DNA of 64,000 bases from a virus, in IMG/VR virus record IMGVR_UViG_3300031578_000004, positions 1-64,000 of that record; one strand, given 5' to 3'. The position numbers were made by a program, and so were the translations under genes. Below, piece by piece: positions 30,971-58,909 of the stretch (position 1 is its first letter; every line of letters begins with the position of its first letter). The notes below the pieces were generated by a model, which was not told the origin of the DNA, searched no databases, and worked only from the letters and a program-made list of their open reading frames with translations.

Positions 30971-30979
30971 TACTATTAC

Positions 30980-44590: not shown

Positions 44591-44631
44591 ATAGTGTTAT
44601 TTGCTTCGCTATATTCTTGAATTGTGCAACT
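44591..44631 (-). repeat. Intergenic linker element, copy E1
   Basis: Minus strand: begins right after the TAG of the methyltransferase remnant as TTGCACAATTCAAGAATAT and ends with an ACACTAT. See E3, E4 and E6-E8 for the fuller form. Confidence 0.65.
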
Positions 44632-44721
44632 AAACTATTTTGCTAATTTTTTCATTTGCTATGTTGTAGTAACTTTCGTCTAATTCAATTCCTATAAAGT
44701 TTCTATTAATATTTATACAGG
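44630..44721 (-). pseudogene. 3' fragment of a DNA methyltransferase
   Basis: The frame reading ININRNFIGIELDESYYNIAN, followed by EKISKIV and TAG, is the conserved C-terminal end of N6/N4 DNA methyltransferases and matches the end of the decayed gene at 10070 (NLNRKCIGIELDEKY). The rest of the enzyme is absent; a 29-codon small gene is joined to its 5' side. Confidence 0.7.
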
Positions 44722-44811
44722 TCAACAACGTACTTCTCCCTCTTTTTCTTGCGTAATAACAAAACCTTTTATTTGTTCGAGTGTGAGTTCTCTGCCAAAC
44801 ATTTCAATCAT
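44722..44811 (-). CDS. 29-residue peptide next to the methyltransferase fragment
   Basis: ATG behind GGGGTGAT; MIEMFGRELTLEQIKGFVIT and an EKEGEVRC end. Possibly the surviving start of a longer gene truncated when the methyltransferase fragment arrived. Confidence 0.4.
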   Translation of the reverse strand: MIEMFGRELTLEQIKGFVITQEKEGEVRC

Positions 44812-44815
44812 TTTA

Positions 44816-45004
44816 TCACCCCTTATATCGCAATATAATATATTTAGATAAATTAGCAAGTGCCTTTCTGTATTTTTCATTTTCTTCTATACAGGCAATT
44901 GCTGTTTCTAGTATGTCTTGCATTAATACACTGTTCATACTCCCATTCAAATCATTTATCTTGTTCTTTCGTAGGTATAATTCTAAATCTTTTTTGGTTT
45001 TCAT
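44816..45004 (-). CDS. Small helical protein in the linker block
   Basis: 62 residues (TKKDLELYLRKNKINDL, then a helix with ACIEENEKYRKALANL). GGGAGG site directly after linker E2. Nothing recognised. Confidence 0.5.
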   Translation of the reverse strand: MKTKKDLELYLRKNKINDLNGSMNSVLMQDILETAIACIEENEKYRKALANLSKYIILRYKG

Positions 45005-45017
45005 ATTACTAACCTCC

Positions 45018-45053
45018 CGCGTTATATATTCATAGTGTTCTTGATATGTGCAT
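45018..45053 (-). repeat. Intergenic linker element, copy E2
   Basis: Minus strand TTGATGCACATATCAAGAAC then ACTATGAATATATAACGCG. Unlike other copies it lies inside the 3' end of the preceding reading frame, which lost its earlier stop. Confidence 0.65.
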
Positions 45054-45218
45054 CAAGTATTTGAAAAATAAAATTATATTATATCCAAATACTTGAATAC
45101 GATTTTTATGTCCTATATATCCAATAACTACTAATCCGTTAATACTGTTACACATATAAGCACCTCCATGTCCGTCTATCTTTTTGGTAATCCATTCATC
45201 ATCGATATGTTTTTTCAT
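45030..45218 (-). CDS. Small protein running into linker E2
   Basis: 62 residues as read, but the last 12 codons (YLMHISRTL region) are encoded by linker E2, where other copies carry the stop codon; the original protein was probably about 50 residues. GGAG site 4 nt before ATG. Confidence 0.45.
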   Translation of the reverse strand: MKKHIDDEWITKKIDGHGGAYMCNSINGLVVIGYIGHKNRIQVFGYNIILFFKYLMHISRTL

Positions 45219-45240
45219 AATTCTCCAACTTTCATTACTT

Positions 45241-45279
45241 CGCGTTATATATTCATAGTGTTCTTGATATGTGCAACTA
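45241..45279 (-). repeat. Intergenic linker element, copy E3
   Basis: Minus strand TTGCACATATCAAGAACACT then ATGAATATATAACGCG, starting right after the TAG of the gene at 45277. Shares 30 contiguous positions with E2. Confidence 0.7.
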
Positions 45280-45573
45280 TTCTATCCATTCCAAATTAAG
45301 CAATGCCTTTTTCGCCCTTTCAAGGAACTCCTTGCCAACATACAGATTATGTTTCCCGTTTTCGTCTAACGGTTCAGACTCAAAAGCCTTAATTTGTTTT
45401 GATATAAAATCAAATCCTGCTTTACTCTTGATTTTTAATTCTTCATTTCTTCTATCCAATTCTGCTATTGTTGCAATTAAACTTAAAACAGTTGTATTCG
45501 CCCAATTGAATTGTGTTTCGGCTCTCGCTTTTATTTCTTGAATTTGTTTGTCTGTAAATATTATTTCACTCAT
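45277..45573 (-). CDS. Helical protein in the linker block
   Basis: 98 residues from the ATG at 45573 (GTGAGG, 7 nt); a longer frame to 45612 would overlap the neighbour. SEIIFTDKQIQEIKARAETQ then TIAELDRRNEELKIK is a long helix of coiled-coil type. Nothing recognised. Confidence 0.55.
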   Translation of the reverse strand: MSEIIFTDKQIQEIKARAETQFNWANTTVLSLIATIAELDRRNEELKIKSKAGFDFISKQIKAFESEPLDENGKHNLYVGKEFLERAKKALLNLEWIE

Positions 45574-45601
45574 TTTAAACCTCACTTTCTGCAAATTAAT
45601 G

Positions 45602-45946
45602 TTACGATTCAACTTTCCCGCTCAAGATAGACAGCCATTCCTCATTAGGATTTAACCACTCGCCCGCATTGACATAAAATTGAATGTGCAATCCAAGGTC
45701 TGCGTGCTTATCATAGTGTACTTCACCATCAAATACCCTAAATGTATGTTGTCCTCTAAACTCCCTTGTATCAGTATTAAAATGTAACTCGTAAACCAAA
45801 CTAATTTCATGTCCTCTTGCTACTTCAATTGCTTTTTTCAATGCATCATCAAATTTGTCATATAAGAAATAATCGAACTCACCATTTAACGTTACTAAGT
45901 ATTCAAACAATGGTTTTTCTGTCTTTTTCAGCATTGGGTATTTCAC
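45602..45946 (-). CDS. Alpha-beta protein in the linker block
   Basis: 114 residues, GTG start behind GAAGGTGA. Contains FDYFLYDKFDDALKKAIEVA and repeated His/Asp positions (VHYDKHADLGLHIQF) but no known enzyme motif. Confidence 0.5.
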   Translation of the reverse strand: MKYPMLKKTEKPLFEYLVTLNGEFDYFLYDKFDDALKKAIEVARGHEISLVYELHFNTDTREFRGQHTFRVFDGEVHYDKHADLGLHIQFYVNAGEWLNPNEEWLSILSGKVES

Positions 45947-45966
45947 ATTTTCACCTTCTTTTTATT

Positions 45967-46016
45967 ACGTAGTTTTATTCAGATAGTGACACTATTTTCT
46001 TGAAATGTGTAGCATT
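45967..46016 (-). repeat. Intergenic linker element, copy E4
   Basis: Minus strand GCTACACATTTCAAGAAAAT, then ATAGTGTCACTATCTGAATA and AAACTACGT. Carries the palindrome ATAGTG-T-CACTAT shared with E5, E7 and E8. A 9-codon frame (46050-46024) ends at its start. Confidence 0.75.
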
Positions 46017-46093
46017 ATTTTAATAAAATTAAATTCTTTAACATAGTTAATCTCCTTTCTATATTTCCTCCAAATACCTATACCAAGGCAATT

Positions 46094-46422
46094 TTAATAA
46101 AAACTATCTTCAAATTGACTACAAATATCATCTGCTAAAGACTTAGCACCTTCCGCAATCTTATCATCTGTCATTATTTCTTTATTTTTATCAATAACCT
46201 CAAACCACAACTTATCACCATATCCATATAAAGAACATTCATCACCATAAAAATTTAATATATAAAATCCATATTGGCTATCGGTATAAGAATCACATTT
46301 GCAACCAGTTTTATATTTGCCAAACTTAACTTCTCTAGTTACCCAATCTTTCCATATACTTTTTACTTTACTACCTTCTATGACTTTTTATTGTTTTGGT
46401 CTAGTAGGTTTGTGTCTCTCAT
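46094..46422 (-). pseudogene. Frameshifted small gene
   Basis: ATG at 46422 behind AAAGGAG opens 14 codons to a TAG. Removing one A from the A run near 46384-46388 joins it to a 95-codon frame with natural composition (WKDWVTREVKFGKYKTGCKC, then DICSQFEDSFY and TAA at 46094). A single-base change therefore broke the gene, or a sequencing error did. Product unknown. Confidence 0.55.
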
Positions 46423-46464
46423 TTATATTCTCCTTTCTTAATTTTCACTCCTTTGATGGTCTTT

Positions 46465-46818
46465 TTATTTATTTTTATATTTATTCATAAAATAAAACTG
46501 TGGTATTACTATTAAAAAGAGTATCCAGAAACGTTGTGTATAGACACTTACTATGAATATCGCCATTAGGATAAAAGCACCTATAAGCATATCTCTTAGA
46601 AAAATCCAGTTCTTATTTTTAATATCGGTATACACTATGCTAAATAATATTACAAAAATCATTAGTGTATTTACTATAGGAATAATAGGTATATAATATA
46701 TTTCTTTCAAAACTTGCTTAAAAGTCTTTTGTTTACTAACTGGCATATACCATGCCATAATACATATCATAAATGATAGTAGATACATGAATAACCACGT
46801 TGTTATTAAATTTAACAA
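46465..46818 (-). CDS. Membrane protein with three to four helices
   Basis: 117 residues, TTG start behind AGGAGG. Hydrophobic segments at about 4-24, 45-62, 75-92 and 95-110. No family recognised. Confidence 0.55.
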   Translation of the reverse strand: MLNLITTWLFMYLLSFMICIMAWYMPVSKQKTFKQVLKEIYYIPIIPIVNTLMIFVILFSIVYTDIKNKNWIFLRDMLIGAFILMAIFIVSVYTQRFWILFLIVIPQFYFMNKYKNK

Positions 46819-46831
46819 TATTTTATTCCTC

Positions 46832-47011
46832 CTATAAATGTCTATTTTTATAAAACTTATAATCTAATCTAAGCATCAGTCTAAGTGTTTTAAAGGCATT
46901 TTCTTCAGAACTTCCAATTCTTATCATATATGTAATAAATCTTGAAATTAGTGATTCACAAGTAACTAAACTACCTATAACAACACCTAATAATATCCAC
47001 CATATAAACAA
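46832..47011 (-). CDS. 59-residue single-helix membrane protein
   Basis: TTG start behind GGAGG (6 nt). N-terminal membrane helix (IWWILLGVVIGSLVT) followed by a basic cytoplasmic tail (LRLMLRLDYKFYKNRHL). Downstream of, and close to, another small gene. Confidence 0.55.
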   Translation of the reverse strand: MFIWWILLGVVIGSLVTCESLISRFITYMIRIGSSEENAFKTLRLMLRLDYKFYKNRHL

Positions 47012-47051
47012 ATTCTTCCTCCTTTATTTCACGACCAAATTGTTCTTCTAT

Positions 47052-47201
47052 CTAAATTGAATTACTGATACCAATAATTAAAAATCCTAAGAATAAATCA
47101 TTTGACATACCTAATGTTAATCCAATTCTAAATTCATCAGTAGTTCCAATATAAGTAACCCAATTTCTAGTAATCCATTTTTCTAACCAAAACTTTTTCA
47201 T
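47052..47201 (-). CDS. 49-residue small protein
   Basis: ATG overlaps the stop of the upstream gene (TAATG) behind GGAGG. Contains WITRNWVTYIGTTDEFRIG and a hydrophobic end (LFLGFLIIGIS), perhaps membrane-associated. Confidence 0.55.
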   Translation of the reverse strand: MKKFWLEKWITRNWVTYIGTTDEFRIGLTLGMSNDLFLGFLIIGISNSI

Positions 47202-47416
47202 TATTTATCCTCCTTTAAACAATCATATATGTCCTCATTATGTATTTTCTGACACCCACAACTTTTTGTATGATTATTCTTTAAATCTGCACCACGAACA
47301 AAAACTTCTTTATCACTTCCACAATCACACTTGCATAGCCATATACTTTTGCCTAAATATTTCATTGCTGTTAAATGATTAAATTTTAATCCTGTTAAAT
47401 CAATTAATTTACCCAC
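47201..47416 (-). CDS. Zinc-knuckle domain as in HNH/AP2 mobile proteins
   Basis: 71 residues, GTG start behind GGAGG. KFNHLTAMKYLGKSIWLCKC, CDCGSDKEVFVRGADLKN and TKSCGCQ make the small zinc-bound DNA-binding module that normally starts or accompanies HNH homing proteins. Here it stands alone, so it is either a remnant or an independent DNA-binding protein. Confidence 0.65.
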   Translation of the reverse strand: MGKLIDLTGLKFNHLTAMKYLGKSIWLCKCDCGSDKEVFVRGADLKNNHTKSCGCQKIHNEDIYDCLKEDK

Positions 47417-47427
47417 GTAAATCCTCC

Positions 47428-48072
47428 TTAATAAGTCTTGAAATAATCTTCCATATTTTTATGTTTAAATCTATCTTTCCAATTAGGTAAATCTTGCATC
47501 TCAGGCATATACTTTTCAAAGTGCATTACTGCAAAAGCATTCCATACAACAGCAGCCGAATGGTCTTCGTCATCCCAACCATCTATTAATTTAGTTAAAT
47601 GTCTCATACCACTATCAACACATCTTGAAATAGGCATCCCTTTTTCCCAATTTCTATCACTGTATTTATATGAGCCTAATTCTCCCCATTTTGCAAGTCT
47701 TATCAATCCTTTCGGTGATAGTAAATCATATCTACCTAGTTTATTTATTAATTCATATTTTGTTATTTTTATTGTAGATTCTGTTTCTATAATCTGAATA
47801 TAGTTTAAAATATTAGCTCCTACACCAGCTATAAAATCCTCTGTGCTATTACCACTTATATATTCAACATAGCAATAGAAAGCTTCATTTAAATAATCTT
47901 CTTTACTTTTAGTTGAATATTCTTCAATATGTTTTTCTATGTATTTTGCAGTTCTTCTTAATCCCTCTGTAGCTATTAAATCAAATCTTCCTTTACCTGT
48001 GGTAGTGTCTCTAACTGCTCCTGTACCAAATTCTTGTCTCTCTCCTGAGTCATGCATTTGACCATCAATCAT
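47428..48072 (-). CDS. dATP/dGTP diphosphohydrolase-like protein (DUF5664), internally duplicated
   Basis: 214 residues made of two related halves. Residues about 26-95 (GKGRFDLIATEGLRRTAKYI ...) and about 110-195 (LGRYDLLSPKGLIRLAKWGE, DRNWEKGMPISRCVDSGMRH, DEDHSAAVVWNAFAVMHF) both match the DUF5664 / dATP-dGTP diphosphohydrolase N-terminal family. Only the second half keeps the whole NWEKG..R..HL..DEDH set expected for metal-dependent nucleotide hydrolysis. Helps shape the dNTP pool (family knowledge). Confidence 0.75.
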   Translation of the reverse strand: MIDGQMHDSGERQEFGTGAVRDTTTGKGRFDLIATEGLRRTAKYIEKHIEEYSTKSKEDYLNEAFYCYVEYISGNSTEDFIAGVGANILNYIQIIETESTIKITKYELINKLGRYDLLSPKGLIRLAKWGELGSYKYSDRNWEKGMPISRCVDSGMRHLTKLIDGWDDEDHSAAVVWNAFAVMHFEKYMPEMQDLPNWKDRFKHKNMEDYFKTY

Positions 48073-48089
48073 TCTGTTCTATTCCTCCT

Positions 48090-48716
48090 TTAATTTCTTT
48101 TTAATATAATAATATTTGCTTTAGTTAAACCGAAATCCATAGCCTTTTGTGAAACTTTTTCACCTGTATCTTCCATAAAGAAGTCTATCTTATTACCTTT
48201 GATTAATCTTCCTGTATCTTCGGCGTGATATATTCCTGAAAAGTTTTTATATTCTTCATTAGTAAACTGAATATAAACTTTACTACCTAATGGTATAACA
48301 CTTGGGTCAACTGCTATTACTCTTGCTGTCTTATATGTATGACCTTTTAAATCAAATCCTGTTCTAGTAATGCCATAACCCCTTGATGTTATTTTCTTTC
48401 CACAGCTTTGTACGGATAAATCATAGGCTGACACTGTAAATCCTTCTAATATTTCATATGTATTTTCTTTTACTTGAGCCTTTGGTTTAGGATTATCCAT
48501 CCACTCTCTCAACTCAACAGGTAAACCATTCCAATTCTCTAAAAACTCATTTTGTTCCTTTGTAAATATGTATATGCTTTTATTACTTTTATATTCTTCG
48601 TTCTTTGTATTTTTTAAATTATTCGCATTACCAAACAATATCACAGCTATTAAAATTATTCCTAGTAAACATTCATATAACCTGTATTTATCCACATCAT
48701 CTTGATACTTTTTCAT
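48090..48716 (-). CDS. Membrane-anchored 3D-domain cell-wall protein
   Basis: 208 residues from the ATG at 48716 (GGAGGTT). One N-terminal membrane helix (about 10-30), a linker, then a 3D domain: FTVSAYDLSVQSCGK, GYGITRTG, VIAVDPSVIPLGSKVYI and YHAEDTGRLIKGNKIDFFM with the three aspartates. Related domains are peptidoglycan lytic enzymes (YuiC, Sps proteins). It could remodel the wall of the infected or lysogenic cell. First gene after the promoter at 48790. Confidence 0.8.
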   Translation of the reverse strand: MKKYQDDVDKYRLYECLLGIILIAVILFGNANNLKNTKNEEYKSNKSIYIFTKEQNEFLENWNGLPVELREWMDNPKPKAQVKENTYEILEGFTVSAYDLSVQSCGKKITSRGYGITRTGFDLKGHTYKTARVIAVDPSVIPLGSKVYIQFTNEEYKNFSGIYHAEDTGRLIKGNKIDFFMEDTGEKVSQKAMDFGLTKANIIILKRN

Positions 48717-48789
48717 ATGTATAACCTCCGTCAATTTATTATAGTACTTATTGGTGAAAAATCTAATAATTTATATCTCCCATAATTTA

Positions 48790-48831
48790 ATTATAACACC
48801 GTTAATTTATATGTCAATACCTAGTTTTATA
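48790..48831 (-). promoter_or_regulatory. Promoter, TTGACA-N16-TATAAT with TATAAAA box at 7 bp
   Basis: Minus-strand TTGACA (48812-48817), 16-bp spacer, TATAAT (48790-48795), TATAAAA (48825-48831). Confidence 0.88.
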
Positions 48832-48854
48832 TTTTTTGTTTTGTATTATAAATC

Positions 48855-48902
48855 GTAACAAATGGATTGCTATATCTCGTATAACATTAATCCAATTGCT
48901 AC
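48855..48902 (-). terminator. Hairpin after the 48916 gene
   Basis: GTAACAAATGGATT (48855-48868) pairs with AATCCAATTGCTAC (48889-48902) with three mismatches. It separates the gene at 48916 from the promoter at 48790. Confidence 0.5.
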
Positions 48903-48915
48903 TTTTTTATATGTT

Positions 48916-49476
48916 CTATTGTTTGCTTAATTGTTTTATGTAACTTATGTTATAGCAGACCAAGCTTTTTAAATTTCTTTTCTGTAAGTAGAAACCGTAT
49001 ATGTCAGAGGCATCTAATCCAATATGTATTAATCCTAAGATTCTATCAAATATATGCTGTTCTATTGGTTCAAGAAATAGCTCTTGCAAAGTCATATGGA
49101 GTGCCGAGTGACACTCATATTTAATCATTTTATCCATTACACCTAAATATTCATCTGTACTACCCCTACTATCTAATATGTATCTTCTATATTTCCTAAA
49201 TTGCTGTGCAATATTTCCATCAGCATCATAAAACTTTTCATAAAACACTTTAAGTCTTTCTGTTGTGTTACAAAGTAAGTTTGCTAACTTGATAAAATAG
49301 TAGCTGTGAAGCTCTAGGATGCCTTTAAAGACATTTTGGGGATATATATAGTTATAATAGTATAATACTTTGTTGTTTTTAAGACCTAATATCTCATCAT
49401 TTAATCCTAATTCAAATATAAACCTATTAACCTCTGCAACCATTTCTTGAGCAGATAACTTAGTGTTTTCCTTCAT
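48916..49476 (-). CDS. Unrecognised helical protein
   Basis: 186 residues, all-helical look, rich in Leu, Tyr and Ile; TTERLKVFYEKFYDADGN and HMTLQELFLEPIEQHIFDRI are typical stretches. AAAGGAG site. Next to the IscB element, which appears not to have cut any gene. Confidence 0.5.
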   Translation of the reverse strand: MKENTKLSAQEMVAEVNRFIFELGLNDEILGLKNNKVLYYYNYIYPQNVFKGILELHSYYFIKLANLLCNTTERLKVFYEKFYDADGNIAQQFRKYRRYILDSRGSTDEYLGVMDKMIKYECHSALHMTLQELFLEPIEQHIFDRILGLIHIGLDASDIYGFYLQKRNLKSLVCYNISYIKQLSKQ

Positions 49477-49517
49477 GTTTTTCTCTCCTTTACATTATAA
49501 TTTGGTGTTGTAAATTT

Positions 49518-49563
49518 TTGTCGAAAACTTTTGTTTGTATTATAAAGAGAAAAACATTATAAT
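49518..49563 (+). promoter_or_regulatory. Plus-strand promoter pair for a small RNA
   Basis: Two overlapping candidates: TTGTCG-N17-TATAAA (49518-49546) and TTGTAT-N17-TATAAT (49535-49563), pointing right against all neighbouring genes. Confidence 0.6.
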
Positions 49564-49567
49564 GATT

Positions 49568-49640
49568 TGTAGGCAAAAGTCGTGAACTCGGCAAAAGACA
49601 CACGATTGCTACAGAGGCTAGAGGAAACTCTAGCTTTTTG
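49568..49640 (+). ncRNA. Candidate small RNA with own promoter and terminator
   Basis: About 73 nt, noncoding. A nested stem TGTAG/CTACA (49568-49572, 49609-49613) encloses TCGTG/CACGA (49580-49584, 49601-49605); then GCTAGAG-GAAA-CTCTAGC (49617-49634) with a GNRA loop followed by TTTTTGTTTTT is a textbook intrinsic terminator. It is the only transcript seen on the plus strand right of 6 kb. Target unknown; an antisense or trans-acting regulator is inference. Confidence 0.65.
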
Positions 49641-49756
49641 TTTTTCTCAAACTTTTTTGTTAATTGTTTTTTAATTAAATATGTAGAACATTTTATTTTA
49701 TATCTCTTATTTTATATCTCTTATTTTATATCTCTTATTTTATTACCTCAACAAGA

Positions 49757-51300
49757 ACACTCGTGACTTCAGTCATGAGATGAATTGTTGACAATCTATA
49801 ATCCATGATTTTCTAGCCTGTATTCTTTCCATTTTACTAAACTTAGGAATAGGTTTTAAATTAATCTTATTTCCTTGAATATCCATTAAAATTGCATAAC
49901 CTGTAGACATTCTCCCCTTGATAAAATATTCATTACCCAAATACCTCACCTTATCAAACTTTCTAAAACCTTTAATTTTACCTGTGTTGATTCGTTGCTC
50001 ACTTCTAATGCCTTTCGTTTGCTGACAATCACCATCGGAAACACACTTTTTTAACAATATTATATTGTTTTTAAATTGAATTTCATTCCCTTGACTTGCA
50101 ATAACTACAGCATCCATGTAATGCTCTTTAGGCAAGTTCAATAATTGTCTATGTTCTTTGGTTATAAATCCAAAGGTTTCTTCCGCATTGGGTAATAACT
50201 TCAATAATTGAGTTCTTATGCTATTCATTTGAGTAGCATGTTTTAATTGCCCTTTGATTTTTCCACCTTTTAAAGTAATATTTCCTTCATGTAAATTATC
50301 ATGACAGGTTTTACATAAAGTTATCAAATTACTTTCTTCATCTGAACCTCCATTTCTTCTAAAGGTTATATGATGTACTTCAAGTTTACTATTCTTATTT
50401 TTATCTTTACAATGTTGACAGGTGTAATTATCTCTATTTAATACATATGCCTTAGTATTAGCAAATCCATAATTAATGCCTTTTTGATATAACCACTTAT
50501 TCCATAATACACTAGGATTCTTTAAAGCATGTGTATCAAATGTAGCAGTTTCTAATATTACTTTTGTAATAGGCAATATTGATTTTACAAAATTAATTTC
50601 CTTTAAATGGCTGTTTATTTTACTATTCATTGTGGGAGAAAATCTGTCCTTTTTAATTGAATTTTTTCTGTTCAACCATCTTGCTTTTCTGTATCTGGTT
50701 TTCCTATTACGTCTATTTCTGCGATATTTAGAACGTCTTGTCATCTTGTCTGAAATATCATTTCTAATTTCAACTTGCGACATATAAACAACATTACCAT
50801 TATCTTTAACTGCCGAACTACCAATTTTACTACTTCCAGTATCAATGCCTAATATAATATTTTGAGTGTAGTTTGTAGTTTGATAAAGAAGTTTAATAGT
50901 AAAGGGTATTCTTCTAATACATTTAGCTTTGCATTGTTTGAGCAGTAATCTTGCAATCGCTGATGAACAAGGCATCAATGGTGTGCCATCATAATTAATT
51001 ACATAAACCATATAATCAACTCCTGATAAATTCTCTACATTACTGTAGGATGTGCGTATCTTATTACTATTACCATAATAAGAATTCGTCTTCATCTCGA
51101 CAAAGATAATTAGGCTTTTGCACTTATATCACCGAACCTTACCTTAGTTCTACTTAAATATAAGTGATAGAGCAACGGTCTGATGCGTCAACCATAGGTA
51201 TCATGACCTAACTATCGTAGTATCCGTTTCTGGGTACTGAATCTGGTGAACTTAGCATTAGATGCCTACGACTTTAGTCGTGGGTAGTTCAAATCCGTAC
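49757..51300 (-). mobile_element. IS200/IS605-superfamily element carrying IscB, without TnpA
   Basis: One iscB gene flanked by the two subterminal hairpins expected of single-strand transposons: CTCGTGACTTCAGTCATGAG (49760-49779) and CCTACGACTTTAGTCGTGGG (51265-51284). No Y1 transposase is present, so it must move in trans or has stopped. Exact ends were not determined. It lies between intact genes. Confidence 0.8.
49773..51011 (-). CDS. iscB: IscB RNA-guided nuclease
   Basis: 412 residues from the ATG at 51011 (CAGGAG, 8 nt); an in-frame ATG at 51095 lies inside the presumed RNA region and has no ribosome site. PLMP domain (TPLMPCSSAIARLLL), RuvC-I with D57 (ILGIDTGSSKIG), Arg-rich bridge helix (RRSKYRRNRRNRKTRYRKAR), RuvC-II with E154 (ILETATFDTHA), HNH with C198, C201, H213, H214, C233 and C236, and RuvC-III with H297 and D300 (HYMDAVVIA). 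All catalytic residues are present, so it should be active. IscB is the ancestor-like relative of Cas9 and is guided by an omega RNA encoded upstream. Confidence 0.93.
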   Translation of the reverse strand: MVYVINYDGTPLMPCSSAIARLLLKQCKAKCIRRIPFTIKLLYQTTNYTQNIILGIDTGSSKIGSSAVKDNGNVVYMSQVEIRNDISDKMTRRSKYRRNRRNRKTRYRKARWLNRKNSIKKDRFSPTMNSKINSHLKEINFVKSILPITKVILETATFDTHALKNPSVLWNKWLYQKGINYGFANTKAYVLNRDNYTCQHCKDKNKNSKLEVHHITFRRNGGSDEESNLITLCKTCHDNLHEGNITLKGGKIKGQLKHATQMNSIRTQLLKLLPNAEETFGFITKEHRQLLNLPKEHYMDAVVIASQGNEIQFKNNIILLKKCVSDGDCQQTKGIRSEQRINTGKIKGFRKFDKVRYLGNEYFIKGRMSTGYAILMDIQGNKINLKPIPKFSKMERIQARKSWIIDCQQFIS

Positions 51301-51310
51301 AATGTATGTT
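51012..51310 (-). ncRNA. HEARO / omega RNA of the IscB element
   Basis: About 300 noncoding bases upstream of iscB with dense structure: the end hairpin (51265-51284), several short stems and a CACTTATAT/ATATAAGTG stem (about 51130-51175) near a GGTAAGGTTCGG segment. HEARO RNAs (IscB omega RNAs) occupy this place. The guide should be read from the flank beyond the element end, near 51300-51320 (inference). The segment 51012-51095 may be RNA scaffold or leader. Confidence 0.7.
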
Positions 51311-51993: not shown

Positions 51994-52075
51994 TTTTGCT
52001 TCCTCCTAATATAATTGACTTTCGACAGTATCCCGATTCTATAGACATTTCTGATTGTTACAACCATTGGAAATA

Positions 52076-52408: not shown

Positions 52409-52459
52409 ATATTTTCCACCTCTCAAATTTTATTACGTTCCTCTACAACCTTAAGATGT

Positions 52460-52864
52460 TTATTTGTCTATATTTATAGCCATGTTTTTAGGATTATACT
52501 CCATTACGCAATATGGGTAATAATCGTCTGTATTTGCAGTGCCTATCGCTAATACAAGTTTATTAGTGGTTGTGTCCCACATTTCTAATACATCATTAGT
52601 ATAGTAGGTTTCACTAGCTTTCATTTTGCAATATACTTCTACGGATGGTAAAGCATTTTTTATTATTTGTTCTGTTTCTTCTAACTCGTTCATATAACTT
52701 CTATATCCATCACCAGGATCTTCAATTGCCTTATATTTCTTATTGTCTAACCCAAATATGATAAAATTTCTATCCCCTTCACAATCTTCATATTCTATAT
52801 AGGCTTCATTTCCTTGTTCCACTCCTGTTAATAAGTGTATTCCTTGTAAATCTGATAATTGCAT
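52460..52864 (-). CDS. Unrecognised alpha-beta protein
   Basis: 134 residues; contains LLTGVEQGNEAYIEYEDCEG and AIEDPGDGYRSYMNELEE, a pattern reminiscent of small phage proteins of unknown function. AAAGGAAGG site. Confidence 0.5.
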   Translation of the reverse strand: MQLSDLQGIHLLTGVEQGNEAYIEYEDCEGDRNFIIFGLDNKKYKAIEDPGDGYRSYMNELEETEQIIKNALPSVEVYCKMKASETYYTNDVLEMWDTTTNKLVLAIGTANTDDYYPYCVMEYNPKNMAINIDK

Positions 52865-52918
52865 AATTTATACCCTTCCTTTCAATACTTTTTATTTCTC
52901 CTTATATAATACTATAGG

Positions 52919-53089
52919 TTACACTATAATTTTTAAGTAAACTTCATCTAATATATCATCATCACTTTTCATTTCTGACGGATTACCTTTAAATCTTACT
53001 CCTGCTTTTACCAACGCATCGAACTCATTTTCCTTCTGTAGTAAATCATAATACCTTATAGCAGGTATTTTCACCATCTTATCTATCAT
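52919..53089 (-). CDS. 56-residue small protein
   Basis: ATG at 53089 next to AAGGGG, or ATG at 53077 with better spacing. IRYYDLLQKENEFDALVKAG and DDDILDEVYLKIIV make a helical, acidic protein. Nothing recognised. Confidence 0.5.
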   Translation of the reverse strand: MIDKMVKIPAIRYYDLLQKENEFDALVKAGVRFKGNPSEMKSDDDILDEVYLKIIV

Positions 53090-53113
53090 TACCCCTTACA
53101 CCCTCCCTTGTTC

Positions 53114-53173
53114 CTATCCTCTACAGTTGTTTTGGTTGAATGTGAAAAATTTTGTTTGTATTGCACTTTCCAT
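53114..53173 (-). pseudogene. Truncated start of the 'FTFNQNNSGG' phage protein family
   Basis: GGAGG then ATG opens MESAIQTKFFTFNQNNCRG and stops. Many phages carry a small protein beginning with a near-identical FTxxQNNSGGxF motif that continues for 60-80 residues with cysteines; here the reading stops at the SGG position. A remnant is likely. The sequence from 53090 to 53113 shows nothing else. Confidence 0.5.
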
Positions 53174-53209
53174 ATATAGGTACCTCCTAAATTTAATCTC
53201 TTACTTATA

Positions 53210-53261
53210 ATTATATAACACATATTTCCATTGTCAATACCTAAATCAAAATATTTTTATA
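53210..53261 (-). promoter_or_regulatory. Promoter, TTGACA-N16-TATAAT
   Basis: Minus-strand TTGACA (53232-53237), 16-bp spacer, TATAAT (53210-53215); TATAAAA (53255-53261) ends 17 bp before the -35, one helical turn further than the 7-bp class. Confidence 0.8.
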
Positions 53262-53309
53262 TTAATCATTCTATAATAGACACCGAAAATTATATCTCGA
53301 TGCCAACTC

Positions 53310-54266
53310 TTATAAATAATCCTCAATTTTCTGTTTTGTCTGATACCAATAAGTTTCTCCAGTTTCACCATATCTAAAATATTCATTTATTGCGATATAA
53401 TCTTCTTTCTCTAGTTTATCTTTTCCTAATTCTTCTTTTAATCTCTTAGCATATAAAATTACCCCACTCCACCAAAGATTAGTTATGTTTAAAAATGGTA
53501 AATCCATTAATGTAAATATATTACTCATTCTTCTACTTACAAGTTGTCTAGGTATTTTATCCTCTGTGCTTCGTTTTGTGGCTCTGAAAATGTATCCTGT
53601 GACTTTGAGTGGGAATGATTTTACACGTGCAGTTGGAGAGGGTTCTCCATTATTAACCTCATATCGTTCTTGATTAATCGCATCAGTAATCAATATAATT
53701 GTAGACTCATCTACTTCTAATGTTCTAATGACTTCATCATTTTCATTTCTTAAATCAATCTTTTTAGATATTGTGTGACAATCTTCAATTCTTAAATTTG
53801 ATAATTCTATCACTGTTAATCCTAGTGTAGTTAATTTGATTAGTAACGCATCTTGAGCATTAGCACAAAACTCTATTATGTCATCTAGGTCTGCTTGATT
53901 AGTAATGTGTTTATTGGCTTGCGCTACTTTATTAACATATTTACTATATTGACTTTCTCCACCTCTAAACATTTCAGATACCCAATTAACCTTACTCTTT
54001 ACATAGCCATTTTCCAAACACCATTGTACATATTGTTCAATTATACTTCTTCGTGTAGCAAATCCAATATCAGATTTTGACCTAAAACCTAAAAACATTC
54101 TATCAAAATCTTGAGTATTAAATTCATACATATCTTTTTCAAGTTCAAATTCTGTCTTAGCTGCACTTTGTAAAACATATTTAATATGTTCTTGTGTAGC
54201 TTCGGAATCATATGTCTTAACAAATCGTTCTTTTATTTCATTATTATATAAATCAAATGTTCTCAT
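53310..54266 (-). CDS. Tyrosine-recombinase-like protein lacking catalytic residues
   Basis: 318 residues from the ATG at 54266 (GGAG, 8 nt; a GTG at 54275 overlaps that site). A core-binding-like N-terminus (about 20-115) is followed by a region with the recombinase outline: LTTLGLTVIELSNLRIEDC stands where GLRxxEL..L..D is expected, so the first arginine is Thr; the HxLRH box reads NITNLWWSGVI; YWYQTKQKI ends the fold. With both arginines gone it should bind DNA but not recombine. Paired with the DGQHR/ParB-like gene upstream, 15 bp apart. Confidence 0.6.
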   Translation of the reverse strand: MRTFDLYNNEIKERFVKTYDSEATQEHIKYVLQSAAKTEFELEKDMYEFNTQDFDRMFLGFRSKSDIGFATRRSIIEQYVQWCLENGYVKSKVNWVSEMFRGGESQYSKYVNKVAQANKHITNQADLDDIIEFCANAQDALLIKLTTLGLTVIELSNLRIEDCHTISKKIDLRNENDEVIRTLEVDESTIILITDAINQERYEVNNGEPSPTARVKSFPLKVTGYIFRATKRSTEDKIPRQLVSRRMSNIFTLMDLPFLNITNLWWSGVILYAKRLKEELGKDKLEKEDYIAINEYFRYGETGETYWYQTKQKIEDYL

Positions 54267-54281
54267 TTTTCTCACTCCTTC

Positions 54282-55589
54282 CTAAACAAATTTTCTGAAA
54301 TAGTTAGCTATCTTTTTATAGTTGGTTTTTGATAATTTATGAGTATCAAATTTAAAACTATCAATCCAAATTGAGTTTTCTAAGCTAAAATCTATTTTAG
54401 ATAATATTTCGTTAAGACGAGTTCGCCAATCTGTGTTATCTTTTAATTCTTTAGACAAGGTAATATAACCAATAAAACTGTATTTATGATTCATAAAACT
54501 TTCATTCTTAGTTGTTTTGAAATCTGTAAATATATGAGCTACTTCATTTAAAAATTCTACAATCCATTCGCTTAATACTATTGCATCTCTCTTTGAATTT
54601 GTTTTTTCATTCAATTCATATTCATATTTTAAAGAATTAATAAGTGTCTCAAATGTAGTTAAAGAGTCACCATTAATAATATCTGTATTGTGTACTCCAA
54701 TCTTTCCTCTGAGGTCACTAGAAGGACTTTCATTAACTTTCTTTACTATTATAGTTTCAAGTTGAGTTGTGTCTTTAGATTGAATATAAACCTTACTTAT
54801 CTCATTATGTTCGTTTTCTTGTTTTATATATTGTATTGCTTTATCAGTATCATAATTTCTAATATAAACACCTGTAATATACTCGACATCAGAATTATCA
54901 TTGATAGCTGATAACATTCCCATTGAACGATGCATTCCATCAAGTATATCAAGTTCTCCACTATTAATAGTTAAAGTGTGATTCTTAGCATCATAAACAA
55001 ATTCGTCTGTTCCATCTTGTAATAAATTTAATGTTATATGATTTGTTTCTTGAGTACCATTTAATATATTTTCTTTGATACTTTGTACAGATTCATTGTT
55101 AATGTCAATAATCTCTACAAGTTGGTCACGAAATTTAGTTTGTTTAGTTTGTCTTTGTGTTTCTCTATTATAAGTAACTAGATTTCTTGCCCACCAATTA
55201 TTAACTATCTGACATGGTATTGCTGGAGCATCATATATATCGTCTTTTACCTTAAACACACCTTCAATAACTACAGGGAATCCACCCATTTTTATCTTTT
55301 CTCTTCTATATGAGTTTCCATCTGTTATTTCAGTTTCATTATACCAAGTTGTAGGATTAATAGTGCGTTCATCTGTATTGTCATGAAATAATTTAGTGAG
55401 TAAATATAAAGTAGGATTATCTATTGTCTCAACTGGAATATGACCATCTACTATTCTTAATACATCTCCACTGTAAAATCCTCTTTCGACAAATCCTTCA
55501 GTAACTTTACTTATTACATTTTTATTTGCGTTATACTTTTCAAATATGACCAATAACTCTTTTTCAAGCGTTTTTCTATCCTTTTTCAC
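54282..55589 (-). CDS. DGQHR/ParB-like protein
   Basis: 435 residues, GTG start. The motif LDILDGMHRSMGMLSAI (about 213-230) matches the DGQHR signature of DndB/ParB-related proteins, and KAIQYIKQENEHNEISKVY follows as in that fold. The remaining 200 residues are helical. Relatives act in DNA phosphorothioation control or plasmid partition; which applies here is not clear. Own promoter at 55625. With the next gene it forms an operon. Confidence 0.6.
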   Translation of the reverse strand: MKKDRKTLEKELLVIFEKYNANKNVISKVTEGFVERGFYSGDVLRIVDGHIPVETIDNPTLYLLTKLFHDNTDERTINPTTWYNETEITDGNSYRREKIKMGGFPVVIEGVFKVKDDIYDAPAIPCQIVNNWWARNLVTYNRETQRQTKQTKFRDQLVEIIDINNESVQSIKENILNGTQETNHITLNLLQDGTDEFVYDAKNHTLTINSGELDILDGMHRSMGMLSAINDNSDVEYITGVYIRNYDTDKAIQYIKQENEHNEISKVYIQSKDTTQLETIIVKKVNESPSSDLRGKIGVHNTDIINGDSLTTFETLINSLKYEYELNEKTNSKRDAIVLSEWIVEFLNEVAHIFTDFKTTKNESFMNHKYSFIGYITLSKELKDNTDWRTRLNEILSKIDFSLENSIWIDSFKFDTHKLSKTNYKKIANYFRKFV

Positions 55590-55624
55590 TTAATTCACAC
55601 CCTTTTTATATTTATCATAATTAA

Positions 55625-55654
55625 ATTATAGTATAATTATATCCTTCATGTCAA
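55625..55654 (-). promoter_or_regulatory. Promoter of the DGQHR gene
   Basis: Minus-strand TTGACA (55649-55654), 18-bp spacer, TATAAT (55625-55630). No TATAAAA box; the surrounding TATAATTATA words could be an operator. Confidence 0.65.
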
Positions 55655-55730
55655 GCAATTATACTATTCATTATGTATTAATAGGTGTAAACTTTATATT
55701 TATTGTTGGTGCAAATGGAATTTTATAGGT

Positions 55731-56099
55731 TTAAGTTGCAATTGTTTTGTTTTTATGTACGTTTTTATTTATTTTATTGTTTAAATTATTATGTATTGAT
55801 AATTGCTCAAATAACTTATCAATTCTTCTTTCTCCACTTCTACGTCTGTCATAGATTGTTTTAGTATCATGTTTGTTTATGTATTCTATCACTTCATTTA
55901 CATTGATAAATTTGTGGTTGTGCATATGACACATGTGTTTACAAACACCTTTATTTTTATGTTTCAATCTAAAGTGTGTGTCTTCATCTGAAATTATCCA
56001 AGTATTAAGTGCTGTTTCTATGTGGATTTGGTCAGGGTATATTTTATAGTTAATGTTATATCTGTTACATAGGCTTTCGACTCTGTTGATGTCAATCAT
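55731..56099 (-). CDS. Small His-rich protein
   Basis: 122 residues. An alpha-beta start (VESLCNRYNINYKIYPDQIH) and a Cys/His cluster (CKHMCHMHNHKF) suggest metal binding; basic RRRSGERR and Asn/Lys-rich tail. GAGGTG site. Nothing recognised with certainty. Confidence 0.5.
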   Translation of the reverse strand: MIDINRVESLCNRYNINYKIYPDQIHIETALNTWIISDEDTHFRLKHKNKGVCKHMCHMHNHKFINVNEVIEYINKHDTKTIYDRRRSGERRIDKLFEQLSIHNNLNNKINKNVHKNKTIAT

Positions 56100-56168
56100 A
56101 ATGTTTTCACCTCTGTTTCTTATTTTTTTTAATTAGTTTTATATAGTGTGTATAGAGTTAGAGGGGAC

Positions 56169-56846
56169 TTAAAACCCCTCTAGTTTGATTGGTGTTACCT
56201 TACTATTACTACAGTAGTTATTTACTGCCTGTATTCTACTTCGTAAATTAACGACAATATTTTCATCCTTTATTTTTACAATAGTTTCATCAAGTTGTTT
56301 TATTTGATTTTTTTCTATGTATATTTCACAGAGGGTTTCATAAGCATTATTAAAAAACCACTCTGCATTATTAAAAGAATCATCTTTTGTACTTATTATA
56401 TTATGTACTTCTGTTAAAAGTTCTTTTATCTTTTCATCATCTTTTTCAATCTTTGCTATATTAAAGTCCATATGAATACGTTCATCTTGCATCTTATTGT
56501 TTGTGAAATAGTCACTGCATTGTTTAAAAAACTTTATTGCTTTTTTATCTAATTTCAAAGAATAATAACAATTACCCATTACCCAATTACATTCCATATG
56601 TTCTTTAAAATCATTTGTGTAATTTTTACTTTCAGATACATAACTTAAAGCTTTTTTACATTGACCTTTTTTTCTATAACACATTGCAAGTATTAAATTG
56701 AAAAACCATAAATTATGATTGTCTTCGGGATAATCATTTTTTATCATTATTAATATTTCATCACATTTTTTTATTGCTTCGTCATATCTATCCTTATTTT
56801 TTAATGTAACAACCTCTTCTTGTTCTCTCACAAAATTATCTTTCAT
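56169..56846 (-). CDS. TPR-repeat protein
   Basis: 225 residues from the ATG at 56846 (GGAGG, 8 nt). At least four tetratricopeptide-like helix pairs (RYDEAIKKCDEIL, LAMCYRKKGQCKKALSYV, MGNCYYSLKLDKKAIKFF). Such proteins bind peptides or partner proteins; Rap-like and AimR-like regulators are TPR proteins but are longer. Lies 25 bp after the MazF gene, in the antitoxin or regulator position. Confidence 0.65.
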   Translation of the reverse strand: MKDNFVREQEEVVTLKNKDRYDEAIKKCDEILIMIKNDYPEDNHNLWFFNLILAMCYRKKGQCKKALSYVSESKNYTNDFKEHMECNWVMGNCYYSLKLDKKAIKFFKQCSDYFTNNKMQDERIHMDFNIAKIEKDDEKIKELLTEVHNIISTKDDSFNNAEWFFNNAYETLCEIYIEKNQIKQLDETIVKIKDENIVVNLRSRIQAVNNYCSNSKVTPIKLEGF

Positions 56847-56871
56847 CGTGCAATCCTCCATTCTATAAATT

Positions 56872-57528
56872 TTACATTGCATTTTGCTTTCTATTATCTG
56901 TAGATATTTTTATAAATGTTTTTTCTTTTAAAACTTTACTGTAATCATATCCATACTGATTGCAATATGATTGTAATTCTTTAACTAGTCTTATATGCAA
57001 TCTTGCATCTTCAGGGTCAAAACCATTTATGTGAGCTTCACACTCTACTTTATTAATCCAATTAACTGTATCCTTTATATATTCTAAATCAATTGTTCCT
57101 GCTTGAATTTTAACTGCTGTGTCAATTTGTTCCATAATATAATTTGAACATCTTCCGACTTTAGATATTATAAGTTTTTTGTCAATTGTGAAAACCTGTT
57201 CCACTAACACTAATGAATCAAATTTAAGTCCTGAATCCTCTAATACTTTTACATGTGTTGGCAGTTTGTTTTTATTAAGATTGGATGTTAATGTTGCTAC
57301 CCATATTGTTGGAGAAAACCTATTATTCACATTATTGCTTAAAACTACGGCTGGTCTAGGTTTTGATTGTATACTGTGGTCTCTACCACTCTTTATTAAT
57401 TGGTCGAAATCTACAAATATTAAATCACCCTTTTTAACTTCTAATAATTTTTGTACTTCATTGATTAGATTCTTGTTTGCTACATTGTATGTAGTATGAC
57501 TGTTAATATTTTGAATGCATGTTGTCAT
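56872..57528 (-). CDS. MazF/PemK-type toxin
   Basis: 218 residues. The MazF fold is seen in GDLIFVDFDQLIKSGRDHSI, SKPRPAVVLSNNV, WVATLTSN and SLVLVEQVFTIDKKLI, with a 25-residue N-terminal and a 75-residue C-terminal extension. MazF proteins are mRNA interferases. No classical MazE-like antitoxin lies next to it; the adjacent gene is a TPR protein. In a phage the pair may stabilise a plasmid-like prophage or block competitors. Confidence 0.8.
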   Translation of the reverse strand: MTTCIQNINSHTTYNVANKNLINEVQKLLEVKKGDLIFVDFDQLIKSGRDHSIQSKPRPAVVLSNNVNNRFSPTIWVATLTSNLNKNKLPTHVKVLEDSGLKFDSLVLVEQVFTIDKKLIISKVGRCSNYIMEQIDTAVKIQAGTIDLEYIKDTVNWINKVECEAHINGFDPEDARLHIRLVKELQSYCNQYGYDYSKVLKEKTFIKISTDNRKQNAM

Positions 57529-57627
57529 TTAATTTATTCACTCCTTTGTAATAATTTTATATTTTGTGTTTTTTGTTGAATTGGTCTATCTTTGGTTTGT
57601 ATTATTCTTGTGTTGTGACTTATTACC

Positions 57628-57885
57628 TTACTTTTTTCTGTTTACCTTCTTGGACTGCTTAGTCATCTTTTTTTTATTGCTTTTCTTCTTTTGCTTTGCC
57701 CAAGCTGTTAAGGGAGTATCTTTGTTCATATCTACAATTGTGCATTCCTTATCCCCTAGCTCAACTTCAGCTTCTTCCTCGTGTTCATTTGGTACAAATT
57801 GCAAAGCTTCCCCAAACATTTCTTTTAATTCCATTAACTCCTCAGCTGAATTAATACGATATAATTTACCTGTAGCTACATCCAT
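57628..57885 (-). CDS. Conserved phage protein with Lys-rich tail
   Basis: 85 residues: MDVATGKLYRINSAEELMEL, an acidic helix, CTIVDMNKDTPLTAWA and a strongly basic tail (KKKSNKKKMTKQSKK). The pattern is known from Firmicute phages and prophages; RNA or DNA binding by the tail is plausible. Next to linker E5. Confidence 0.6.
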   Translation of the reverse strand: MDVATGKLYRINSAEELMELKEMFGEALQFVPNEHEEEAEVELGDKECTIVDMNKDTPLTAWAKQKKKSNKKKMTKQSKKVNRKK

Positions 57886-57912
57886 TATTTTCCCTCGCTT
57901 TCAATTATTTAA

Positions 57913-57950
57913 TTACATATAGTGACACTATTTTATTGAATTGTGACTTA
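57913..57950 (-). repeat. Intergenic linker element, copy E5
   Basis: Minus strand GTCACAATTCAATAAAATAG then TGTCACTATATGTAATT, starting at the TAA of the gene at 57948. Confidence 0.75.
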
Positions 57951-58169
57951 GCTAAAAGCCTTAAAGTGTTCTGCTAATGTTTCGTTTGACATTTCAATCC
58001 AGCCATTCACATCAGATTCTAGTCTAACTTCTCCACCTATAAATCTATAATTTTCATTATCTGGAAGATGCCAAACTGTGCCTTCTTCCACAATCAGATA
58101 CTCATTATCTAAAGTAAAGCCATCGTCGTCACGTTTTTCTAAAGAAAATCCTTTAATACATTCAAACAT
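57948..58169 (-). CDS. Small beta-rich protein in the linker block
   Basis: 73 residues; CIKGFSLEKRDDDGFTLDN, YRFIGGEVRLES and an acidic end match a small Firmicute phage family of unknown function. AGGAGG site. Confidence 0.6.
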   Translation of the reverse strand: MFECIKGFSLEKRDDDGFTLDNEYLIVEEGTVWHLPDNENYRFIGGEVRLESDVNGWIEMSNETLAEHFKAFS

Positions 58170-58189
58170 TTTTCAAACCTCCTTTCTTA

Positions 58190-58239
58190 CGACATATTTT
58201 ATTCAGTAGTTGTATCTACTTCTTGAATTGTGCAACTTA
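58190..58239 (-). repeat. Intergenic linker element, copy E6
   Basis: Minus strand GTTGCACAATTCAAGAAGTA, then GATACAACTACTGAATAAAA and TATGTC. The palindrome of the other copies is diverged here. Follows the TAA of the tiny gene at 58237. Confidence 0.7.
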
Positions 58240-58311
58240 TCTGCTCATACCTAGTGCCATAGCTGTTGCCCCTAATATCATACCTATTATTAATATCAAA
58301 ACACCTTCCAT
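58237..58311 (-). CDS. 24-residue membrane peptide
   Basis: ATG behind GGAGG opens MEGVLILIIGMILGATAMAL and ends GMSR. A single hydrophobic helix, sitting as one cassette between linkers E6 and E7. Confidence 0.6.
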   Translation of the reverse strand: MEGVLILIIGMILGATAMALGMSR

Positions 58312-58324
58312 TCAATATCCTCCT

Positions 58325-58373
58325 TCGCATTTTATTCAGATAGTGACACTATTTTATTGTGATGCGACACTAT
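58325..58373 (-). repeat. Intergenic linker element, copy E7
   Basis: Minus strand TGTCGCATCACAATAAAATA, then GTGTCACTATCTGAATAAAA and TGCG. Best preserved palindrome ATAGTG-T-CACTAT. Starts at the TAG of the gene at 58370. Confidence 0.8.
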
Positions 58374-58630
58374 CCTTCATTTGAAACCCTTATTGCAACT
58401 TGCTCTAATGCTTCAACTTTATCAAAAGTATCTGTTTCGTAGAAATTAAATAAGTGTATTTGGTTTTCGCCTTTACTTTCGTATATCTGATAAAGTTTTA
58501 CCGTATACCCCTTGCGACTTATTTCAAGAGATAGATGCAGTTTCACTTCTTTTGCAAGGTCTTTATTTTTAATTGTATTTGTTTCAATCCAAACCCATAA
58601 ACCACAAAATGTTAATTTATTAAAGTCCAA
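58370..58630 (-). CDS. Small protein in the linker block
   Basis: 86 residues, TTG start behind GAGGG. Alpha-beta pattern (LAKEVKLHLSLEISRKGYTV, HLFNFYETDTFDKVEAL). Nothing recognised. Bounded by linkers E7 and E8. Confidence 0.55.
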   Translation of the reverse strand: MDFNKLTFCGLWVWIETNTIKNKDLAKEVKLHLSLEISRKGYTVKLYQIYESKGENQIHLFNFYETDTFDKVEALEQVAIRVSNEG

Positions 58631-58668
58631 TTTATCCCTCCTATCGTTTTGTTGCCCTTAACAATACG

Positions 58669-58712
58669 TCGCATTTTATTCAGATAGCGACACTATTTAA
58701 TTGAAATGTGTA
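58669..58712 (-). repeat. Intergenic linker element, copy E8
   Basis: Minus strand TACACATTTCAATTAAATAG, then TGTCGCTATCTGAATAAAAT and GCGAC. Follows the TGA of the gene at 58713. Confidence 0.8.
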
Positions 58713-58865
58713 TCAATCTTTCATATCTTTGTGGTCATTGCATGATTCGTCTGATTCTGTTTTCTCTTTCAAAACCGGGCAATATCCATATCCATCATCT
58801 TTGTCTTGCCAATGTTCACAACTACTACACGTTGTAAATTCATACCTGTATCTTTTCCTTTTCAT
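58713..58865 (-). CDS. 50-residue cysteine-rich protein
   Basis: ATG behind AAGTGAAGGG. CSSCEHWQDKDDGYGYCPVL and a later SCNDHK give four cysteines and His, a zinc-knuckle-like pattern. One cassette between linkers E8 and E9. Confidence 0.65.
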   Translation of the reverse strand: MKRKRYRYEFTTCSSCEHWQDKDDGYGYCPVLKEKTESDESCNDHKDMKD

Positions 58866-58880
58866 CCCTTCACTTCCTTA

Positions 58881-58909
58881 TGGCACAGTTTATTCAGATA
58901 GTGTCCTTA
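58881..58909 (-). repeat. Intergenic linker element, copy E9 (partial)
   Basis: Only the CTATCTGAATAAACTGTGCC half is present; the first half is replaced by the end of the 25-codon frame at 58890. Confidence 0.6.

What the first reader, a model, noticed from the sequence alone, without database searches (positions are those of the whole stretch)
44591..58909. Nine copies of one intergenic linker element separate tiny genes like cassettes
On the minus strand each copy starts at, or one or two bases after, a stop codon and ends before the next ribosome site. Consensus: GTTGCACAATTCAAG, then AATAGTGTCACTATCTGAATA, then AAATGCG, with a palindrome ATAGTG-T-CACTAT. Copies lie at 44591, 45018, 45241, 45967, 57913, 58190, 58325, 58669 and 58881, all in one orientation, in two blocks 12 kb apart. 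Between them sit genes of 24-114 codons with unrelated products, including a methyltransferase fragment. Two copies (45018 and 58881) have become part of coding sequence. This suggests genes that are swapped or inserted as units by recombination between linkers, or a shared regulatory site (dimeric repressor operator or RNA hairpin).
Basis: partly seen in the sequence, partly recalled or inferred. Interest (0 to 1): 0.8.

Follow-up and report, generated by a model that had tools for sequence, protein, structure and literature searches.

The report
Repeated spacer between tiny phage genes
In two gene islands of a 130-kb SPbeta-like phage, probably of a Clostridium-like host, small unrelated genes are preceded by mosaic copies of one short spacer found in no other sequence we searched, most likely a boundary carried along when such genes were shuffled, though no mechanism is proven.

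Summary
The repeat is real but overstated. Five copies (45967, 57913, 58190, 58325, 58669) score far above shuffled sequence; 44591 is marginal by score but has an exact 15-base front; 45018 and 45241 are a shortened pair, identical over 35 bases; 58881 keeps only the right third. No segment is shared by all nine. Left and right halves are related differently from copy to copy, so copies look chimeric. All are minus-strand. Each precedes an intact small ORF, while the gene just upstream is truncated or a remnant in four cases. The rest of the 130-kb record has no copy; IMG/VR, 85,000 bacterial/archaeal genomes, phages and plasmids gave only chance-level matches. The phage is SPbeta-like, with relatives of MrpR/YopR and YopQ. 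Block 2 lies inside that immunity gene cluster. A colinear relative has different genes and no linker at both loci, so both are accessory islands. The linker is not SPBRE, the known SPbeta repressor site: this phage has separate SPBRE-like elements elsewhere. RNA hairpin and promoter readings are not supported. Most likely the linker is a boundary or leader copied with small-gene cassettes from an unsampled source and used as a homology patch. An unknown operator or inert duplication remains possible.

The parts
44591..44630 (-). linker copy 44591: exact left segment GTTGCACAATTCAAG, then a 9-base longer middle, then CACTAT; follows a methyltransferase remnant
45018..45054 (-). linker copy 45018: short form, identical to 45241 over 35 bases; its left end is read into the ORF upstream
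45241..45277 (-). linker copy 45241: short form
45971..46013 (-). linker copy 45967: full form, after a 9-codon ORF remnant
57907..57949 (-). linker copy 57913: left segment and palindrome, diverged right segment
58192..58236 (-). linker copy 58190: left and right segments, palindrome replaced
58325..58376 (-). linker copy 58325: palindrome and right segment; left segment replaced by another half-site
58669..58714 (-). linker copy 58669: full form, palindrome with one change
58886..58904 (-). linker copy 58881: right part only (ACACTATCTGAATAAA), fused to a truncated ORF
44372..44554 (-). 60-aa ORF downstream of linker 44591, no family match
44632..44720 (-). 3' remnant of an N6/N4 DNA methyltransferase gene (77-79% DNA identity over about 85 bases to staphylococcal and enterococcal phage methyltransferases)
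44816..45004 (-). 62-aa ORF downstream of linker 45018
45030..45218 (-). 62-aa ORF between the two identical short linkers; its 3' end runs into linker 45018
45277..45573 (-). about 98-aa ORF; ends at linker 45241, no linker in front
45602..45946 (-). 114-aa ORF downstream of linker 45967, no relative found
57628..57885 (-). 85-aa ORF downstream of linker 57913
57948..58169 (-). 73-aa ORF downstream of linker 58190
58237..58311 (-). 24-aa hydrophobic ORF (MEGVLILIIGMILGATAMALGMSR) downstream of linker 58325
   Evidence: sequence
58370..58630 (-). 86-aa ORF (TTG start) downstream of linker 58669
58713..58865 (-). 50-aa cysteine-containing ORF downstream of linker 58881
58890..58967 (-). short, apparently truncated ORF fused to linker 58881
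53310..54275 (-). relative of MrpR (YopR), master repressor of SPbeta
54282..55589 (-). relative of SPbeta YopQ
56872..57528 (-). MazF/PemK-family protein, next gene downstream of block 2
59331..60260 (-). tyrosine recombinase upstream of block 2, weakly like SPbeta YopP, conserved in the linker-free relative

Best explanation
The two blocks are accessory-gene islands of an SPbeta-like phage, one of them inside its immunity gene cluster. The linker is a short intergenic sequence that sits at the 5' side of small ORFs and travels with them (linker, ribosome site, ORF), ending up directly behind the stop codon of the gene before. Shown here: repetition, mosaic copies, position, restriction to the islands, different genes and no linker at both loci in a relative. 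Inferred: that the set came from a source not in the databases, and that copies served as short homology patches at which cassettes were joined, duplicated and lost by the recombination system of phage or host. Any regulatory role is unproven.
For: Copies above controls and nowhere else in the record. Relative G002 is colinear on both sides of each block but has other ORFs there and no linker. Closest full-form pairs lie across blocks (45967/58669: 87.5% over 48 bases; 44591/58190: 18 identical bases). 44591 and 58190 share 17/17 in the left part and 9/21 in the right; left and right distance matrices are uncorrelated, r = -0.17. Exact 35-base repeats flank ORF 45030-45218. Four upstream neighbours are truncated or remnants (44632-44720, the ORF read into 45018, a 9-codon ORF before 45967, 58890-58967), while every downstream ORF is intact. 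Block genes average 31.4% GC against 28.4% for other small minus-strand ORFs, p about 0.015-0.024.
Against: No second genome with the linker, so no movement was observed directly. Homology of 15-48 bases is short for homologous recombination. The left/right incongruence rests on few bases and also fits indels and independent decay. GC contrast is weak. The source lineage is hypothetical.
Confidence: 0.45

Rival explanations
1. A regulatory site: the dyad ATAGTGTCACTAT or the segments around it bind a phage or host protein that co-regulates the small genes (operator or stoperator-like), other than MrpR at SPBRE.
For: Single orientation, placement just upstream of each ribosome site, an intact ORF always downstream, an exact 13-bp dyad in three copies and one change in a fourth. 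The phage encodes an MrpR relative and other DNA-binding proteins.
Against: The dyad is absent in five of nine copies and no segment is common to all. No dyad in excess of chance outside the copies, including near the repressor gene. Linkers match SPBRE-type motifs no better than random 60-mers. No promoter-like sites coincide with linkers on the gene strand.
Confidence: 0.25
2. An inert repeat: intergenic sequence duplicated a few times within accessory DNA and now decaying, with no role in gene exchange or regulation.
For: Copies range from intact to one third; five lack the palindrome; nearby genes are decayed.
Against: Consistent orientation and position between stop codon and ribosome site, and copies in both islands with cross-block pairs closest, would need several independent placements.
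Confidence: 0.2
3. An RNA hairpin in the mRNA (processing, stability or translation element).
For: Arms ATAG/CTAT or AGTAG/CTACT can pair in six copies by eye; 58325 folds well (z about -2.3 to -2.8).
Against: Eight of nine copies fold no better than dinucleotide shuffles, each into a different structure. No Rfam match at the linkers and no terminator-like sites.
Confidence: 0.07
4. Sites of a site-specific recombinase, such as the tyrosine recombinase 59331-60260, working like an integron.
For: A tyrosine recombinase gene lies just upstream of block 2.
Against: The relative keeps that gene (55% identity) at the same place without any linker. By eye the linkers lack integron core motifs GTTRRRY/RYYYAAC. 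Copies have variable length and no fixed crossover point.
Confidence: 0.03

Closest known systems
SPBRE, the SPbeta repeated element bound by MrpR (PMC10516654)
   Same: A short repeated intergenic element, multi-copy in an SPbeta-type phage; the phage here encodes an MrpR relative.
   Different: SPBRE is an AT-rich 15-bp promoter element (in SPbeta AAATAATATGTATAT). The linker does not resemble it, and this phage has separate SPBRE-like elements, AACAAATAATATAAAAATAA.
Promoter early stem-loop elements (PeSLEs) of T4-type phages, 'mobile regulatory cassettes' (Arbiol et al. 2010, cited in PMC4177764; the paper itself was not available, description from own knowledge)
   Same: Repeated intergenic elements in front of small accessory genes, proposed to mediate modular shuffling.
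   Different: No promoter and no supported stem-loop here; different phage group; seen in one genome only.
Start-associated sequences (SAS) and extended SAS of Cluster K mycobacteriophages (PMC3203893)
   Same: Repeats just upstream of start codons, nearly all in one orientation, restricted to non-structural genes, rare outside their cluster; ESAS carry imperfect inverted repeats.
   Different: SAS is a well-conserved 13-bp sequence tied to the start site and shared by all Cluster K phages; the linker is a poorly conserved mosaic, adjacent to the preceding stop, and not shared by its relative.
Stoperators of Cluster A mycobacteriophages (PMC9283540)
   Same: Short intergenic sites in one orientation relative to transcription.
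   Different: Stoperators are asymmetric 13-mers spread through the genome and bound by the repressor; the linker has a dyad in some copies and lies in two islands only.

Membership tests
SPBRE (MrpR operator) | match to the 15-bp SPBRE motif | tested here: not met
   best match 4-6 mismatches in every linker, same as random 60-mers
SPBRE (MrpR operator) | phage encodes an MrpR-type repressor | tested here: met
   Pfam MrpR_N_CB E 2e-18; BLASTP to SPbeta YopR 21% identity, E 3e-8
SPBRE (MrpR operator) | binding by the repressor | not testable with these tools
   needs ChIP/ChAP-seq or a gel-shift assay
PeSLE mobile regulatory cassettes | promoter within the element | tested here: not met
   no promoter-like site on the gene strand at the linkers, overall number as in shuffles
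PeSLE mobile regulatory cassettes | stable stem-loop in each copy | tested here: not met
   folding energies within shuffles for eight of nine copies
PeSLE mobile regulatory cassettes | same element around different genes in related phages | tested here: inconclusive
   no other genome with the linker was found
Start-associated sequences (Cluster K) | conserved short motif tied to the start codon and shared by related phages | tested here: not met
   mosaic copies, absent from relatives
Stoperators (Cluster A) | asymmetric sites spread over the genome | tested here: not met
   only two islands; partial dyad
Integron-type cassette sites (attC) | paired core sites GTTRRRY/RYYYAAC flanking each cassette | tested here: inconclusive
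   not seen on reading the linker sequences, but no dedicated scan was run
Rfam RNA families | covariance-model match | tested here: not met
   only a HEARO match, away from the linkers

The most novel reading that the evidence does not exclude
The linkers are active exchange points of a cassette system in an SPbeta-like phage: small lysogeny-expressed genes with a standard 45-base leader are captured, duplicated and lost by recombination at the leader, so that the immunity gene cluster works as an array of interchangeable genes.
Probability: 0.15. Interest if true: 0.7.

Novelty: new member of a known kind. Interest (0 to 1): 0.4.

Why it matters
Phages gain and lose small host-interaction genes fast, but how unrelated genes are joined without breaking operons is poorly known. 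A repeated leader at two variable loci, one inside an SPbeta-type immunity gene cluster, would be a concrete system to test homology-patch shuffling. If it is only an operator or a decaying duplicate, it is a minor genome feature.

Tried and rejected
(1) Linker as RNA hairpin: folds of single copies and of whole stop-to-start spans are within shuffles; an extended inverted repeat that looked convincing by eye did not survive this test. (2) Linker as MrpR operator: attractive once MrpR and YopQ relatives were found, but SPBRE derived from SPbeta does not match the linkers and SPBRE-like elements exist elsewhere in this genome. (3) Linker as promoter or terminator: no excess. (4) Linker as recombinase site: the recombinase is conserved in a linker-free relative. 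(5) Hits of 17-20-base core patterns in IMG/VR and GTDB genomes: single, partial matches without the full linker; the Bacteroides pair has further palindromes of its own nearby and the Clostridia MAG hit lies upstream of groES/groEL-like genes, by reading. (6) A model search of 391 genomes of the class of that Clostridia MAG was empty, but with strict filters and no positive control it shows little. (7) Protein searches for the small ORFs: orphans. (8) Relatives by the MazF gene: only the same relative G002.
Full report
What was checked. The window is bases 1-64000 of a 130,358-base virus record; the remaining 66 kb were fetched and included in the genome-wide scans. G+C is 28%. A gapped scan with the consensus against the whole record scored 70, 66, 64, 58, 46 and 40 for 45967, 58669, 58325, 57913, 58190 and 44591; the best score in 20 Markov controls was 39. 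A sequence profile of the first five found those five at E 1e-12 to 1e-8 and 44591 at 0.03; the five are its own training set, so this is partly circular. Copies 45018 and 45241 are identical to each other over 35 bases but score at chance level against the consensus; they are accepted because of their left ends GATGCACATATCAAG and GTTGCACATATCAAG and their position. 58881 has only the right part. No other gene end in the genome carries the linker.

Anatomy. The linker is best described as three segments: left GTTGCACAATTCAAG, middle ATAGTGTCACTAT, right CTGAATAAAA. No segment is present in all copies: the middle is exact in three and one change off in a fourth, the right is intact or nearly so in five, the left is exact in two and recognisable in five more. 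The distance between TTGCAC and CACTAT is 9, 18 or 27 bases by hand count. The left half of 44591 equals that of 58190 (17/17) while their right halves are unrelated (9/21); over eight copies the left and right distance matrices are uncorrelated (r = -0.17). So copies look chimeric, though with so few bases independent indels and decay cannot be excluded. The closest full-form pairs lie across the two blocks.

Genes. Every copy is followed by an intact ORF with a ribosome site (114, 62, 62 and 60 aa in block 1; 50, 86, 24, 73 and 85 aa in block 2). The genes before the copies are often broken: a methyltransferase 3' remnant before 44591 (77-79% DNA identity to staphylococcal and enterococcal phage methyltransferases), an ORF read into 45018, a 9-codon ORF before 45967, and a short ORF read into 58881. 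This asymmetry suggests that the linker belongs to the gene behind it. The small proteins have no relatives in PHROGs, Pfam, phages or IMG/VR beyond weak sub-threshold matches.

The phage. The DNA polymerase is closest among phage records to an unnamed faecal phage (45.1%) and Clostridioides phage LIBA6276 (44.5%). Window 53310-54275 is a relative of MrpR (YopR), the SPbeta master repressor (Pfam E 2e-18; 21% identity, E 3e-8). Window 54282-55589 is a relative of YopQ (25%, E 4e-25), and the recombinase 59331-60260 is weakly like YopP (E 8e-5). In SPbeta yopP, yopQ and yopR are adjacent; here block 2, a MazF-like gene and two others lie between the recombinase and the YopQ relative. So block 2 is inside the immunity gene cluster. 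That it is transcribed in the lysogen is an inference from SPbeta.

Comparison. The IMG/VR record behind L009 (G002, 137,947 bases, 28% GC) is colinear: block 1 is framed by genes matching G002 125047-125343 and 120504-120824, block 2 by genes matching 106980-107633 and 102274-102414. Between these G002 has other small ORFs and no linker. Both places are therefore variable islands in this phage group. Block genes average 31.4% GC against 28.4% for other small minus-strand ORFs (p about 0.015-0.024), which weakly favours recent arrival.

Elsewhere. Exact core patterns gave nothing or single partial matches in IMG/VR and GTDB genomes; a search with the 47-base consensus in phages and plasmids gave E 3 or worse. 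The source of the linker is unknown. The tools state that near-identical records may be left out, so copies in the same population would not be seen; one such contig (L008) is 100% identical over 14,505 bases at 20854-35358, outside the blocks.

Mechanism. Regulation by MrpR was tested because SPBRE is a repeated intergenic element bound by MrpR (PMC10516654). The SPBRE motif recovered from the SPbeta genome, AAATAATATGTATAT, does not match the linkers better than random 60-mers, while AACAAATAATATAAAAATAA, which resembles SPBRE, occurs repeatedly elsewhere in this genome. RNA folding is at shuffle level for eight of nine copies. No promoters on the gene strand and no terminators coincide with linkers. 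The recombinase near block 2 is conserved in the linker-free relative, against a site-specific system. What remains is a boundary or leader copied with small genes, with junctions at or inside it, usable as a homology patch. This is an inference from anatomy and comparison, not an observation of movement. Confidence 0.45; an unknown operator (0.25) and an inert duplicate (0.2) are the main rivals.

Novelty. Phage-specific repeated intergenic elements are known (SPBRE, PMC10516654; SAS and ESAS, PMC3203893; stoperators, PMC9283540; T4-type mobile regulatory cassettes, Arbiol et al. 2010, known to me and cited in PMC4177764). The linker fails at least one defining feature of each, so it is not filed under any; it is a new member of the general kind.

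Noticed in passing
window 49773-51292, minus strand: IscB-type RNA-guided nuclease gene (440 aa; RRXRR and HNH domains; best PDB relatives are IscB) with a HEARO (omega RNA) match directly upstream at 51085-51292, E 2e-20, between the two linker blocks.
   Followed up: partly
whole record, e.g. window 10071, 36794, 40712 (minus); record 77617, 78591, 80946, 82032, 82870, 94078 (plus): Repeated element AACAAATAATATAAAAATAA, often just upstream of ribosome sites or TTGACA boxes, resembling SPBRE of SPbeta; G002 has its own version (AATACTAATATAAAATT, 19 forward matches). Candidate MrpR operators in an AT-rich SPbeta relative.
   Followed up: partly
window 53310-57528, minus strand: SPbeta-like immunity gene cluster (MrpR and YopQ relatives) with a MazF-family gene upstream; in SPbeta YopM of the same operon is reported to bind the MazE antitoxin (PMC10516654).
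   Followed up: partly
record 122441-123340, plus strand: 299-aa protein with a long cysteine-rich repeat (CTGTCSGGCTSC...), of unknown role.
   Followed up: no
window 60785-61045, minus strand: SpoIIID family transcription regulator (Pfam E 4e-31) in the phage, and a MazE/AbrB-type DNA-binding protein at 62262-62537.
   Followed up: no
window 10070-10531 and 44632-44720, minus strand: Two partial DNA methyltransferase sequences sharing a C-terminal motif (84% over 45 bases); 10070-10531 matches only the last 25 positions of the Pfam profile.
   Followed up: no
window 62669-62758 and 62893-62937: Three 45-base repeats of about 71-73% identity, two in tandem, each with a CTATAACAGC-like core on the minus strand, near the regulator genes.
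   Followed up: no
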